From: Asaia bogorensis
GTDB taxonomy: Bacteria; Pseudomonadota; Alphaproteobacteria; CACIAM-22H2
Length of the DNA stretch: 34,324 bases
NCBI GenBank assembly: GCA_945892765.1
Contig: CAMDDQ010000006.1
Span: 1-34,324, forward strand
Direction of reading: 5' to 3'
In this document: positions 9,480-22,762 of the stretch, one piece after another
Position numbering within the stretch: position 1 is the first letter of the stretch
How the letters are laid out: each line of letters opens with the position of its first letter
Program-made: the position numbers and the translations under genes
Notes under the pieces: model-generated
What the model was told of the DNA's origin: nothing
What the model saw: the letters and a program-made list of their open reading frames with translations, nothing else
Database searches by the model: none

Positions 9480-10028
9480 ATGCCCCTGTCCGCGCCCGCC
9501 GCCCGCGAGTCCATTCACGAACGCCGCATCGACTGCAAAGGATACCGGCGCGGCGACGGTTTATGGGACATCGAGGGCCATCTCACCGACCGGAAGACCT
9601 ATGACTTCGTGAACGCCTGGCGCGGCGAAGTCAAGGCCGGGGAGCCGGTACATGAAATGTGGCTGCGGCTGACGATCGACGATGACTTGACGATCCGGGC
9701 CGCCGAGGCCGCGACCGAGGCGGCGCCCTATCGGGTCTGCTCCGGTGCGTCGCCGCTTTTCCGACGGCTCGAGGGCCTGCGTATCCGGGCCGGTTTCAAG
9801 CGCGAGGTGCATAAACGCCTGGGCGGAAACTGTGGCTGCACCCATCTGATCGAACTAGCCGGGCGGCTGGCCACCGTCGCGTTGCAGACTATCGTTCCCC
9901 TGCGTGACCGCGAGAAAGCCGGCAACCGGGCCGACATTCATCCGAGCCTGCTCGATAGTTGCCATGCCCTGCGCCGCGACGGCGAGGTGGTTCGTGAGTT
10001 CTGGCCGAATCATTACACCGGCCCCTGA
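9480..10028 (+). CDS. DUF2889 domain-containing protein
   Basis: MPLSAPAARESIHERRIDCKGYRRGDGLWDIEGHLTDRKTYDF...GNCGCTHLIELAGRLATVALQTI; recognised DUF2889 pattern. Confidence 0.88.
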   Translation: MPLSAPAARESIHERRIDCKGYRRGDGLWDIEGHLTDRKTYDFVNAWRGEVKAGEPVHEMWLRLTIDDDLTIRAAEAATEAAPYRVCSGASPLFRRLEGLRIRAGFKREVHKRLGGNCGCTHLIELAGRLATVALQTIVPLRDREKAGNRADIHPSLLDSCHALRRDGEVVREFWPNHYTGP

Positions 10029-10038
10029 TCCGTCGTTG

Positions 10039-10329
10039 TTAACTGCCGGTCGCGGCGGCGTTGGCCTCGTCCGGCGTCAGCGTGGCCAGCGATAGGGCGT
10101 GGATTCTTTGCGCCAGCTCCACCTCCAGCAATCGATGAATCATCCGCTGTCGCTCGACCCGGCTCTTGCCGGCGAAGGCGGCGGCGACGACGGTCAGGCG
10201 AAAATGGGTCTCACCCTCCGGCCGAGACCCGGCATGGCCAGCATGTTTGTGGGATTCATCAACGATGTCGAGCCGCGCCGGCTTGAGTGCCTCGGTCAGC
10301 TTGGTTCGGATCGTCTCGGCGACAATCAT
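10039..10329 (-). CDS. BolA family protein
   Basis: 96 aa; MIVAETIRTKLTEALKPARLDIVDESHKHAGHAGSRPEGETHFRLTVVAAAFAGKSRVERQRMIHRLLEVEL. Confidence 0.95.
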   Translation of the reverse strand: MIVAETIRTKLTEALKPARLDIVDESHKHAGHAGSRPEGETHFRLTVVAAAFAGKSRVERQRMIHRLLEVELAQRIHALSLATLTPDEANAAATGS

Positions 10330-10446
10330 GATGGCTCCTCGCCCATGGCCCGGCTACGAGAGGCGAATTCGGCGGGCCACGTCAAGCAAAAGAGAAGCCG
10401 GAGGGTGGCTTGTCAGCCGCCGCAGGACTGCCCCATACTTCCGGCC

Positions 10447-11019
10447 ATGCGCCACAGCCGGATCAGGGCCCTGGAGGCCCCCTTCCTTGACAGCGAGGCA
10501 TCGCCCCGGCCTTGCGATCATCCGGGCTGCGCGGCCGAAGGCAGCTTCCGCGCGCCGCGGTCGCGCCTGGACCTGGGCAGCTATTACATGTTCTGCCTCG
10601 ACCATGTGCGCGAATACAACGCGGCCTGGGACTATTACTCCGGGATGAGCCAGGCCGAGATCGAGGCGGAATTGCGCGCCGACATGGTCGGCCGGCGGCC
10701 AAGTTGGCCGATCGGAACCCGGGGGCGCGGCGCGGTTCATCGCACCGAACCCGACATTTTCGATTTCTTCGATCTTTTCAGCGGCTGGAACGCACGCAGC
10801 AACCGCCCGCCGCGACGGCCGCGGACGCCGGAGGAAGAGGCCCTGGTCGTGCTGGGGCTGGTGACGCCGGTCACCGCCTCCCAGGTGAAAGAGCGCTACC
10901 GCCGCCTGGTCAAGATGCACCACCCCGATTCCCATGGCGGCGACAAGGATGCCGAGGAAAGGCTGAAAACGATAAACCAAGCCTATATGATAGTCAGGAA
11001 CGGCGTCGAATCGATGTGA
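10447..11019 (+). CDS. DnaJ (J-domain) protein with C-terminal J domain
   Basis: 190 aa; C-terminal ALVVLGLVTPVTASQVKERYRRLVKMHHPDSHGGDKDAEERLKTINQAYMIV with HPD motif; N-terminal Cys-containing segment CDHPGCAAEGSFRAPRS...YMFCLDHVREYNAAWDYY. Confidence 0.9.
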   Translation: MRHSRIRALEAPFLDSEASPRPCDHPGCAAEGSFRAPRSRLDLGSYYMFCLDHVREYNAAWDYYSGMSQAEIEAELRADMVGRRPSWPIGTRGRGAVHRTEPDIFDFFDLFSGWNARSNRPPRRPRTPEEEALVVLGLVTPVTASQVKERYRRLVKMHHPDSHGGDKDAEERLKTINQAYMIVRNGVESM

Positions 11020-12082: not shown

Positions 12083-13966
12083 TTGCCCCAGGTGACCTCG
12101 CCGTCCGAACAGGACAATCCGATCGAGGATTTCCGAACCGTCACCGGCGCGGCAATCCGCGCCATCTCCGAACGCCCCGACATCACCGTCGCCTTCGCGC
12201 CCGACGGCATCGGCTTGCGCGGCGCGGAGGCCCGGCTGTCGCTGCCGCCGCGCGATCTGCCGCCGCGCGAGGTCGCGGTCGCGCGTGGCGAGGCCGACGC
12301 GATCGCCTTGAAGCTGCGTCACCATGACGAGTCCGTCCACCGCCGGCGCCGCCCAGCGGGACCGATGGCGCGGTCGGTTTTCGACGCGATCGAGCAGGTG
12401 CGTTGCGAGGCCCTCGGCGCCCGGCACATGGCTGGCGTCGCCGCCAATCTCGCCGCCGTCCTTGACGAAACGTGCCGCGCGCGACGCCTCGATGCGGTCG
12501 GGGAACGCGATCCGGCGGCGCTGGTCGACGCCGTTTCCCTCTATGCGCGAGAATCCTTGACCGGACAGCCGTCGCCGGCATCCGGCCGCCGGCTCGTCGA
12601 TGTATGGCTGCCATGGCTCGAGGCCCATTGCGGCCAGGATCTCACCGTGTTGCGCGACCGCCTGACCAACCAGGACGCCTTTGCCGCCGCCGCGCGCAAA
12701 CTTATCCAGCATTTGAAACTCGATGAGGACGAGCCGGCGGCGGAGCCCGAGCCCGAGGCCACCGCGGCCGAGGATGAAAAAGACGAGAACGCCAAGGGCG
12801 ACAGCGAGGACGACTCCGCCGCCGAGGCGGCTGGAGCCGGCCCCGGCGAACGGCAGGATGCTTCGGGCGAGGACGCCCTCGAAGGCACGGAAGAGGAAGG
12901 CGAGAGTGATGGCATCCCCGGAATCGCCGAGGATATGGGTGATCACCCAGGCCGCCGCATGCGCCAGCCCTTCTCCCCGGGGGGCAACCGTGGAGCCGAA
13001 CCTTATCGCGCCTTCACCTGCGAATTCGACGAAGAGATCGGGGCCGAGGAATTGTGCGACGCCGACGAGCTGGCGAGGCTGCGGCTCCATCTCGATCAGC
13101 AATTGCTGCATCTGGGTGGCGTCATCGGCAAACTCGCCAACCGGCTCCAGCGCCGGCTGATGGCACGGCAACTCCGATCCTGGGAATTCGATCTCGAAGA
13201 GGGGATGCTGGACGCCGCCCGGCTCGCCCGCGTGGTCGCGAGCCCGGTTCATTCGCTATCCTACAAGCGGGAGAAGGAAACCGCCTTCCTCGATACCGCT
13301 GTTTCGTTGCTCATCGACAATTCGGGTTCGATGCGGGGCCGGCCGATCACGGTCGCGGCCATGAGTGCCGACATCCTCGCCCGTACGTTGGAACGCTGCG
13401 GCGTCAAGGTCGAAATTCTTGGCTTTACGACGCAGGCCTGGAAGGGCGGCCAGACGCGCGAGCGCTGGCTTGCGCAAGGGAAGCCTTCTTTCCCCGGCCG
13501 GCTCAACGATTTGCGCCACATCGTCTACAAATCGGCGGATGCGCCCTGGCGGCGGGCACGCAAGAACCTTGGTTTGATGCTGCGCGAGGGCCTACTCAAG
13601 GAGAACATCGACGGCGAGGCCTTGTTGTGGGCCTATGCCCGCCTGGCCGCCCGGCCCGAGCGGCGGCGCATCCTGATGGTCATTTCCGACGGCGCGCCGG
13701 TCGACGATTCGACGCTGTCGGTGAATTCCGGCAACTACCTCGAACGTCACCTTCGCCAGGTCATCGACTGGATCGAATCCGGCCTTTCGCCGGTGCAACT
13801 CTTGGCCATCGGGATTGGCCACGACGTAACCCGCTATTACCGCCGAGCCGTCACGATCGTCGACGCCGAGCAACTCGGCGGGACAATGATGGAGAAGTTG
13901 ACGGAATTGTTCGCCGAGCCGGGATCCCGGGCGACCGATCGGCGGTCGCGGGCGCGCCGGGCGTGA
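12083..13966 (+). CDS. cobT: Cobaltochelatase subunit CobT
   Basis: 627 aa (TTG start at 12083); acidic central linker and C-terminal VWA-like domain with MIDAS-like [43 protein letters not shown]; follows cobS. Confidence 0.95.
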
Positions 13967-18769: not shown

Positions 18770-20564
18770 TCAGGCGGGAGCCTTGCGCAGAGCTTCGGCG
18801 GTGAGGAGGACGAACGAAACCGGCTTGTCGAGCCCTTTGACCGGAACGGTCTGCCCGATGACCGACAGACCGGCGACAAGTTTTGCCACAGCGGGGTCCC
18901 GGGCCAGCGATTCCGACATCACGATTTCCCCGCCCAGGCTTTCGCCTTGGAGCCGCGCCGCCAGGTTCACGGTCGAGCCGAAATAATCCATGCGATCATT
19001 GAGCGTGACGGCGATAAAGGCGCCGCCGTGTAGGCCCAGCTTGATGACGATGGTTTCGGCGCCATGCGCCGCAGCATTGGTCGCGTTGAACTGGGCGACA
19101 TTGCGCTGAACGTCGAACGCGGCGCGCAGGGCATCGGCCGGCTGCACGAAAGCCGCCATCACGGCGTCGCCGATGGTCTTGACGATGGCACCGTTGTTGG
19201 CGCGCACGGCCTCGGCGAGGAAAGCGAAATGCTCGCGCACCAGATGATACGCCGCGGCGTCCCCGATGCGGGTGTAAAGCGCCGTCGAGCCCTGCAAATC
19301 CGTGAACATCAACGTGATTTGCGAGATCGCCACCTCGTCTCCGGGGCGCAGGATCTCGGCCGAAAATTGATCGCGAAACGCCTGCATCGCCGTGACCCGG
19401 TGCGCCGTCAGGGCATCCAACACCCAATCGCGCGATTCCACGACGATCGTGGCTTCGCTCCCCGACCGGTTTTCGATGTTCACGAGCCCTGGATTTGCCG
19501 GATTCCCGCAGACGACTCGTTGCGGCTCGGCGATGATCGTCGGGAACGCCTCGGTCCCAAAGAAGATGTCCGACGCGCCGCTTGGTCCCAGCATGCGCAG
19601 CCGGTAGTCGCCATGCGCCAGATCGGCGGGCACGGTGCGTTTCTGCCCGGGCGCCATGATCTGCTGAAGCACGACATGGGGTGTTGTCATCGGACCGGAT
19701 AGGCAAAATTCGCCCTGGGTCAAATGCCGTACCTGAGGCGAGGGATGAAAGGTGATTTCGACGTTGTGATCGAATTCCCGCTCGTAGTCGATGTTGCAGG
19801 AATGGCAGTGCGCCCCGTTCGGAAGCGCGGCCAGCGTGGATGCCGATTCCTTGCCACCGCGACAGCGCGGGCACAACAGGTCCCAGCGCAATTCAAGCAT
19901 CCCCGCCTTCACCGCCGCGAGGCACAGTTCGATGAGGTGGCGGCTGGAGACCTTCCATTGTCCAGCGAGCGCCAACGGGCGGATACGCGTTATGTCCACT
20001 TCCTGCGCGGTCAGAAGGTGATCGGCAAGCCGGCGCGCGAGGCCCTGCCCAAAGGGCGTCGCCTCGATCGCGGCCACCATGCCGTCAACACGTTCGACGG
20101 CGCCTTCGGCGAGATGCGGCGTGGTGTCGAACGGCTGGTCCCGGGTGCCGCCAATGAAGGCGACGGCGTTACGGGCGAGCCGCTCGATGATCCTGCCGGC
20201 TCGATCCAGGAAGCCCAACCGGAACAAGAGGGTGCCGAACAGATTGGCGGCTTCGCCCTCGAGGACATAAGTGGCCTTGCAGCCTTGGCCTTCGGCTTCG
20301 AGGGTCAAAGATGGACCGAAGGTCTTGAACGGCCCTTTGCGGAACAGGCGTCGTTGGCTGCAGTTCTTATTGCGCGCCCATTGATAGGGCCGTTCTTCCC
20401 ATTCCAGCTCGATGCGCCCGATCCGGGCACGGGATTTCCTCCATCCGATAAGGCGGCGTTCCCGCGGCTTCGTTGAAACGCGCGGTATCGGCAAAGACCG
20501 GCCAGATCTTTTCCGGCGGCTGATCGAAATGCCAAACCCAGCTTCGGCGGTAGACTTTGCCCAT
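18770..20564 (-). pseudogene. Class III adenylate/guanylate cyclase with N-terminal SRPBCC-like DUF5939 region and zinc-ribbon-like motif; apparent frameshift near 20420-20450 (pseudogene, or sequence/assembly error)
   Basis: N-terminal piece in one frame (MGKVYRRSWVWHFDQPPEKIWPVFADTARFNEAAGTPPYRMEEIP, start 20564) and the remainder in another frame (ARIGRIELEWEERPYQWARN...LCPRCRGGK...CHSCNIDYE...QITLMFTDLQGSTALYTRIGD...IVKTIGDAVMAAF...DYFGSTVNLAARLQ). The cyclase domain keeps both metal-binding Asp residues. Confidence 0.8.
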
Positions 20565-20718
20565 CGTCGCGCGGCGCCTCCTTGACGCTCTTCTGCCCTT
20601 GTACGCCACCCGCGGCCGCGCAGATTAACCCATCGAAGCCAAATTGGCCGCACGCCTCTATTGCCAGCGCATGTTTTCCGTTATGAGTGGCGGTACCGCC
20701 TAAACTCGGAAGCCAACA

Positions 20719-21060
20719 ATGCCCAAGAAAATCAATCCCCTCAGCCTGAACGCGTTGCAGCTCAAGACCCTGGCGCTGCTTCAGGAGTTGGCACAGCTTC
20801 CCGATCACGGCACCGCCGAGAGTGATGGTACCGTAACCGTGCGCTACTTGCCGCATCCCCATGGCGATCATTTCCATGTCGGCCATCGCATGGTTCACGC
20901 CAGCGATGCCACCGGGCTGGCCTTGGAGGCGCCGTGGATCGCGCTCGAACGCAAGGGTTTGTTGAAATCGAAATTCCCGGAATCGGCCGTGATGACGCCT
21001 GAAGGCCTAACCTATGAAACGGGAGTCCGAGACCTCATTCTTCACGGCGGCGATCACTGA
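20719..21060 (+). CDS. Hypothetical protein with His-rich motif
   Basis: 113 aa MPKKINPLSLNALQLKTLALLQELAQ...TVTVRYLPHPHGDHFHVGHRMVHASDATGLALEAPWIALERKGLL...; complete intergenic ORF with plausible composition. Confidence 0.75.
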   Translation: MPKKINPLSLNALQLKTLALLQELAQLPDHGTAESDGTVTVRYLPHPHGDHFHVGHRMVHASDATGLALEAPWIALERKGLLKSKFPESAVMTPEGLTYETGVRDLILHGGDH

Positions 21061-21955: not shown

Positions 21956-22762
21956 TTATTCCTTGGAGACTCGCGGTTTGCCGAACAAGTAGCCCTGGCC
22001 GAAGTCGATTTGAAAATCGAGCAGCTCAACGAGCGTCTTTTCGGACTCGACCTTCTCTACGATCAAATCGATGCCGTGACGATCGAGGGCCGCCTTCAGC
22101 GCCTGCACTTTGCCCTCGCCGCCCTCACCCCCCGCCTGTTCGATCAGCCGAGCCGCGCCGATCTTGACGAAGTGAAAATGGCGATCGGCGAGATCGGAAA
22201 AATCGAGATCGAGGCTCGCGACTTGATCCATCGAAAAGCCGAAGCCGACATCGGCCAGCTTTTCGAGATGACGCGCGGCCGTCTCGCCGAGCCGGTCAAC
22301 GCTCGATTGCGCAAACTCGAAGGAGAGGTTGGCCGCGAGGTCGGCATTGTCGGACAGGAAGGCGAGGAAGTCGCGGAAAAACCCGGTATCGGCCAGGGTG
22401 TGCTGCGAGATGTTACAGAAAAAGCCGAGATTCTGATTTTTCCTTTGGACACGCCGCACGAGCTGGATGCAGCGGAACAGCAACATGTTGTCGATGGTCC
22501 CGATCAAGCCTTCGCGTTCGGCGACGCCGATATATTGCTCGGGCATCACGACGGAATCGTCGCCAGCGCGAATGCGCGAGAAACACTCGTAATACCGCCG
22601 TTTGCGCTGGGGCAGGCTGACGATTGGCTGGAGGTACAGGTCAATGTCGTCGGCCCGCAACGCCTCGCGCACGATGTCGAGCACGGTGGCGTCGTCGATT
22701 CCCGTCATATAACGCACGGGTGCCGCACGACTCGTGGCCGACGGAGCGGCGGCCGGCGTCAT
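21956..22762 (-). CDS. Degenerate EAL-domain protein (TipF-like C-terminal half)
   Basis: 268 aa; DLYLQPIVSLPQRKRRYYECFSRIRAGDDSVVMPEQYIGVAEREGLIGTIDNMLLFRCIQLV...SFEFAQSS...FGFSMDQVASL...DFQIDFGQGYLFGKPR; EAL fold recognisable but the EAL signature reads ECF and DDFG reads SMDQ. Confidence 0.85.
   Translation of the reverse strand: MTPAAAPSATSRAAPVRYMTGIDDATVLDIVREALRADDIDLYLQPIVSLPQRKRRYYECFSRIRAGDDSVVMPEQYIGVAEREGLIGTIDNMLLFRCIQLVRRVQRKNQNLGFFCNISQHTLADTGFFRDFLAFLSDNADLAANLSFEFAQSSVDRLGETAARHLEKLADVGFGFSMDQVASLDLDFSDLADRHFHFVKIGAARLIEQAGGEGGEGKVQALKAALDRHGIDLIVEKVESEKTLVELLDFQIDFGQGYLFGKPRVSKE

What the first reader, a model, noticed from the sequence alone, without database searches (positions are those of the whole stretch)
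20360..20564. Adenylate cyclase upstream of methylmalonyl-CoA mutase has its N-terminal domain in a different reading frame
Seen directly: the minus strand encodes MGKVYRRSWVWHFDQPPEKIWPVFADTARFNEAAGTPPYRMEEIP in one frame (start 20564; that frame stops at 20367-20369). The clearly continuous domain (ARIGRIELEWEERPYQWARNKNCSQRRLFRKGPFKTFGPSLTLEAEG...) continues in another frame through to an apparently intact cyclase domain. The junction is near 20420-20450. From memory of DUF5939-type cyclases, a short linker should separate EEIP from ARIG, so a small out-of-frame deletion is plausible. Otherwise it is a consensus or assembly error, recent pseudogenisation, or a recoding site. The cyclase half keeps its metal-binding Asp residues, so an internally initiated, N-terminally truncated active cyclase is also possible.
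Basis: partly seen in the sequence, partly recalled or inferred. Interest (0 to 1): 0.6.

Follow-up and report, generated by a model that had tools for sequence, protein, structure and literature searches.

The report
Adenylate cyclase gene with 32-base deletion
A freshwater-type alphaproteobacterium's signalling-enzyme gene has lost 32 bases between two near-identical short repeats, which breaks the reading frame inside its front (ligand-binding-type) domain; this is an ordinary mutation, probably early gene loss or a truncation, not a recoding signal.

Summary
The minus-strand gene 20564→18770 is the ortholog of an intact 608-aa protein in a same-genus genome (G001). Against both same-genus genomes the window lacks exactly 32 nt at 20420-20423. 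The missing stretch runs from one copy to the other of a 13-nt direct repeat, the only pair matching at 12 or more of 13 positions at distances of 10-100 nt in the intact gene. That is the signature of a slipped-strand deletion and argues against a random base-calling or assembly error, although reads could not be checked. The break falls inside an N-terminal SRPBCC/START-like domain (Pfam, AlphaFold2 and Foldseek agree). The DUF5939 and class III cyclase domains downstream are intact and conserved (pairwise dN/dS 0.12). The cyclase frame is open upstream to a GTG at 20653, so a gene finder could call a 627-aa ORF, but that upstream peptide is an out-of-frame reading. No good Shine-Dalgarno precedes the early in-frame start codons. 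The Baikal relative G002 independently carries a stop at codon 5. Best reading: a recent disabling or N-terminally truncating deletion. Recoding is not supported. Interest is low.

The parts
20432..20564 (-). 5' part of the gene in the original frame: first half of the SRPBCC/START-like domain (strand, two helices, next strand); ATG at 20564 preceded by AAGGAGG
   Evidence: matches G001 P0002 residues 1-44 with 0 amino-acid differences
20421..20433 (-). Hybrid copy (CCCGTGCCCGGAT) of the 13-nt direct repeat left by the 32-nt deletion; breakpoint about 20420-20423
20367..20369 (-). TAA stop that ends the original frame about 17 codons after the junction
20117..20420 (-). Remainder of the SRPBCC/START-like domain, in the shifted (+1) frame
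19718..20035 (-). DUF5939 match with a CxxC...CxxC cysteine cluster (CPRC...CHSC)
   Evidence: Pfam PF19363 E=2.2e-16, P0001 residues 133-238; motifs located
18902..19327 (-). Class III adenylate/guanylate cyclase catalytic domain (FTDLQGST, KTIGDAVMA, DYFGSTVNLAAR all present)
   Evidence: Pfam PF00211 E=1.2e-20, P0001 residues 369-510; motifs; closest solved relative Ma1120
18770..20653 (-). Apparent single 627-aa ORF in the cyclase frame (GTG start, no Shine-Dalgarno) that a gene finder may call; its first 74 or so residues are out-of-frame translation

Best explanation
A 32-bp slipped-strand (short direct-repeat) deletion in the lineage of this genome broke the frame of a single-copy SRPBCC-DUF5939-class III cyclase gene at codons 45-56. 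Translation from the normal, well-marked start at 20564 now ends at the TAA at 20369-20367 after 65 residues, so the full-length cyclase is not made. The gene is either newly inactivated, or survives only as a weakly expressed N-terminally truncated cyclase. Shown: the deletion relative to orthologs, the repeats, the domain that is broken and the intact catalytic motifs. Inferred: slippage as the mechanism, that the deletion is in the organism's DNA, and the loss of full-length product.
For: A 32-nt gap at one place against both same-genus orthologs. The gap equals the spacing of the only pair matching at 12 or more of 13 positions, 10-100 nt apart, in the intact gene (1 of 160,069 position pairs tested). 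Where the contig can be compared with both relatives, it is the only frame-breaking indel inside a gene body that is specific to the window, so the contig is otherwise clean. Ten orthologs carry both halves in one frame. There is no second copy and no contig with the undeleted version in the same assembly. The standard start codons in the cyclase frame before 19900 have no recognisable Shine-Dalgarno, while the normal start has AAGGAGG. Of four window-specific changes in the broken domain's remainder, one (F79C) hits a position that is F in all but one aligned relative.
Against: No reads were available, so an assembly or minority-strain origin is not excluded. The downstream 553 codons show no second lesion and dN/dS of 0.12; that fits a very recent break, but also a truncated gene still under selection.
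Confidence: 0.72

Rival explanations
1. Truncated but functional cyclase: the N-terminal SRPBCC domain has been shed and a DUF5939-cyclase protein is made from an internal start (for example ATG 20080 or GTG 20077), giving a cyclase without its front sensor domain.
For: All catalytic motifs are intact. Window-specific changes after the SRPBCC domain are 3 nonsynonymous to 29 synonymous, against 65 to 110 on the longer G001 branch. A Bradyrhizobium homolog naturally lacks the N-terminal domain (L040). G002 independently has a stop at codon 5 with the rest intact.
Against: Early internal starts lack a Shine-Dalgarno. Most of the branch may predate the deletion, so low dN/dS does not prove selection after it. 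The excess of changes in the broken domain is not significant in the window (Fisher p=0.08) and rests on few changes in G002 (p=0.015, one of several tests).
Confidence: 0.18
2. Assembly or consensus error in this metagenome-type assembly; the organism has an intact gene.
For: The genome is in 173 contigs with 3.5% contamination; no reads can be checked.
Against: The break is a 32-nt deletion ending exactly in a repeat pair whose longest exact match is 10 nt, too short to collapse a typical short-read assembly (inference). Other gene bodies in the contig are free of frame breaks specific to the window. No undeleted version is present in the assembly.
Confidence: 0.09
3. Programmed +1 frameshifting or another recoding event joins the two frames.
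For: The two frames overlap for about 60 nt (20431-20369) and the cyclase is +1 relative to the start frame.
Against: Ten orthologs are in one frame without any recoding. The junction is a deletion scar and about 10 codons present in the relatives are missing. I saw no known slippery motif by eye.
Confidence: 0.01

Closest known systems
Pfam PF19363 (DUF5939) - PF00211 class III nucleotidyl cyclases with an N-terminal SRPBCC/Polyketide_cyc2 domain
   Same: The intact same-genus ortholog (P0002) has the order SRPBCC-like, DUF5939, Guanylate_cyc; the window keeps the last two in full
   Different: In the window the SRPBCC-like domain is split between two frames
Bradyrhizobium DUF5939-cyclase (L040)
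   Same: DUF5939 plus cyclase
   Different: Has no N-terminal SRPBCC domain and has its own start codon there; the window's domain is broken by a deletion
Mycobacterium avium Ma1120 (PDB 4wp9 and others; organism from general knowledge)
   Same: Closest solved cyclase catalytic domain by profile (E=4.8e-31)
   Different: Only the catalytic domain is covered by the match
Short direct-repeat (slipped-strand) deletions in bacterial genes
   Same: Deletion spans one repeat copy plus the spacer and leaves one hybrid copy
   Different: Nothing notable

Membership tests
Class III adenylate/guanylate cyclase (PF00211) | Profile match above the curated cut-off | tested here: met
   74.3 bits against a cut-off of 21.9
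Class III adenylate/guanylate cyclase (PF00211) | Metal-binding Asp pair and transition-state Asn/Arg motifs | tested here: met
   FTDLQGST, KTIGDAVMA and DYFGSTVNLAAR present, with the key columns invariant in the alignment; residue roles from general knowledge
Class III adenylate/guanylate cyclase (PF00211) | Catalytic activity and ATP rather than GTP preference | not testable with these tools
   needs an assay
DUF5939 (PF19363) | Profile match above the curated cut-off | tested here: met
   60.3 bits against a cut-off of 22.5
SRPBCC/START-like domain (Polyketide_cyc2) | Continuous domain in one frame | tested here: not met
   Frame broken at 20420-20423 in the window; continuous in G001 and others
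SRPBCC/START-like domain (Polyketide_cyc2) | Fold of the intact ortholog's N-terminal 152 residues | tested here: met
   AlphaFold2 pLDDT 85.5, strand, two helices, six strands, C-terminal helices; top Foldseek hits are SRPBCC/Bet v 1 proteins, best E 3.1e-7, TM-scores about 0.5-0.6. The Pfam match in G001 itself is below cut-off, but in L006 it is above
Pseudogene | Frame-disrupting lesion relative to orthologs | tested here: met
   32-nt deletion
Pseudogene | Loss of constraint across the remaining coding sequence | tested here: not met
   dN/dS 0.12 over 553 codons, no further lesion; consistent with a recent break
Programmed frameshift gene | Frame break conserved in orthologs | tested here: not met
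   orthologs have one frame

The most novel reading that the evidence does not exclude
Two of the three held members of this genus have independently removed the START-like front domain of the same cyclase (32-nt deletion here, stop at codon 5 in G002) while the DUF5939-cyclase part stays under selection. That would be repeated loss of a putative ligand-sensing domain, giving an unregulated or re-regulated, internally initiated cyclase.
Probability: 0.12. Interest if true: 0.4.

Novelty: new member of a known kind. Interest (0 to 1): 0.18.

Why it matters
It is mainly a caution for annotation: the broken gene still appears as a 627-aa open reading frame, so automatic annotation could list an intact cyclase with a false N-terminus. 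If more genomes show N-terminal losses with a conserved catalytic part, it would point to a dispensable sensor domain in a cyclase family for which no paper was found in the held library.

Tried and rejected
Two separate genes: rejected, because ten orthologs are continuous. Programmed recoding: rejected (see rivals). A true alternative N-terminus from GTG 20653: rejected, because there is no Shine-Dalgarno, the same frame carries stops in G002, and the window's peptide is simply the +1 reading of the conserved domain. An intact second copy or haplotype in the same assembly: none found. Literature on DUF5939: no paper in the held library; one paper holds both SRPBCC and adenylate cyclase, and I did not read it. 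A general decay of this contig: not supported, because the other gene bodies compared are in frame.

Full report
Observation. On the minus strand the ATG at 20564, preceded by AAGGAGG, opens a frame reading MGKVYRRSWVWHFDQPPEKIWPVFADTARFNEAAGTPPYRMEEIPCPDRAHRAG... that stops at 20369-20367. The rest of the protein (ARIGRIELEW...) is one open frame shifted by +1 that runs to 18770.

What was lost. Whole-genome searches found one copy of the gene in this genome and close orthologs in the two other held genomes of the genus: G002 at 92% and G001 at 81% amino-acid identity over the 553 codons of the downstream frame. At the DNA level the window has a single gap of 32 nt within the gene against both. 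G001 reads ...EEIPRPDGSVLRIARARIGRMELEW... in one frame through all 608 residues. The N-terminal region is likewise in one frame with the cyclase in seven other genomes (L006-L012) and in L038 and L039. So the halves belong to one gene and the window carries a deletion of 10 codons plus 2 nt.

Mechanism of the lesion. In G001 the missing stretch begins at CCCGCGCCCGGAT and ends before CCCGCGCCCGTAT, 32 nt apart; G002 has the equivalent pair. A scan of the whole G001 gene for 13-nt pairs at distances of 10-100 nt with at least 12 matches finds only this pair among 160,069 comparisons. The window keeps one hybrid copy, CCCGTGCCCGGAT (20433-20421). This is what slipped-strand deletion between short direct repeats leaves, and it would be a remarkable coincidence for a base-calling error. 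Repeats with an exact core of 10 nt should not confuse an ordinary assembler (inference). No contig of this assembly holds the undeleted sequence. Reads were not available, so this remains strong inference rather than proof.

What is broken. The N-terminal 150 residues of the intact ortholog form an SRPBCC/START-like domain: Polyketide_cyc2 matches above cut-off in L006 and more weakly in several others; AlphaFold2 gives a strand, two short helices, six strands and C-terminal helices at mean pLDDT 85.5; and the best Foldseek matches are SRPBCC and Bet v 1 family proteins. The deletion removes the loop and most of the strand at residues 51-59. DUF5939 and the class III cyclase domain follow and are intact, with the catalytic motifs present. 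The closest solved catalytic domain is Ma1120.

Fate of the gene. Across the downstream 553 codons dN/dS is 0.12 to 0.14 in all three pairwise comparisons, with no second lesion. Substitutions specific to the window after the broken domain are 3 nonsynonymous to 29 synonymous; in the remainder of the broken domain they are 4 to 8 (difference not significant, p=0.08), and one of these changes to cysteine a phenylalanine kept in all but one aligned relative (F79C). The break is therefore recent, or the remainder is still used. The standard start codons in the cyclase frame from 20653 down to 19912 have no recognisable Shine-Dalgarno, including ATG 20080, so any truncated product is probably poorly made. 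The long 627-aa ORF from GTG 20653 is an accident of the +1 frame being open; G002 has stops in it.

Relatives. G002 has an independent nonsense change at codon 5 (TAC to TAA), and in G002 codons 1-44 carry relatively more replacement changes than the rest (p=0.015, one of several tests). But G002 also has frame breaks in the neighbouring EAL gene, so its sequence quality or general decay may explain this. A Bradyrhizobium homolog lacks the SRPBCC domain altogether, so a cyclase without it can exist. This keeps alive, at modest probability, the reading that the front domain is dispensable.

Verdict. A well-observed, real-looking 32-nt deletion with an ordinary cause; the gene is a recent pseudogene or a truncated cyclase. 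Not a recoding site and not a new system.

Noticed in passing
L043 (G002:C2) around 10017-10797: The ortholog of the window's EAL-domain gene (21956-22762, minus) is broken into three frames in the Baikal relative by two 1-nt differences, while the window and G001 copies are intact.
   Followed up: partly
L043 (G002:C2) 12197-12214: The start region of the cyclase in G002 reads ATGGGTAAGGTCTAACGC: a stop at codon 5 right behind a normal Shine-Dalgarno and start.
   Followed up: partly
window 20719-21060, plus strand: A small ORF (113 aa, MPKKINPLSLNALQLKTLALLQELAQLP...) sits between the HAD-type gene and the cyclase, on the opposite strand; its DNA is well conserved in all three genomes.
   Followed up: no
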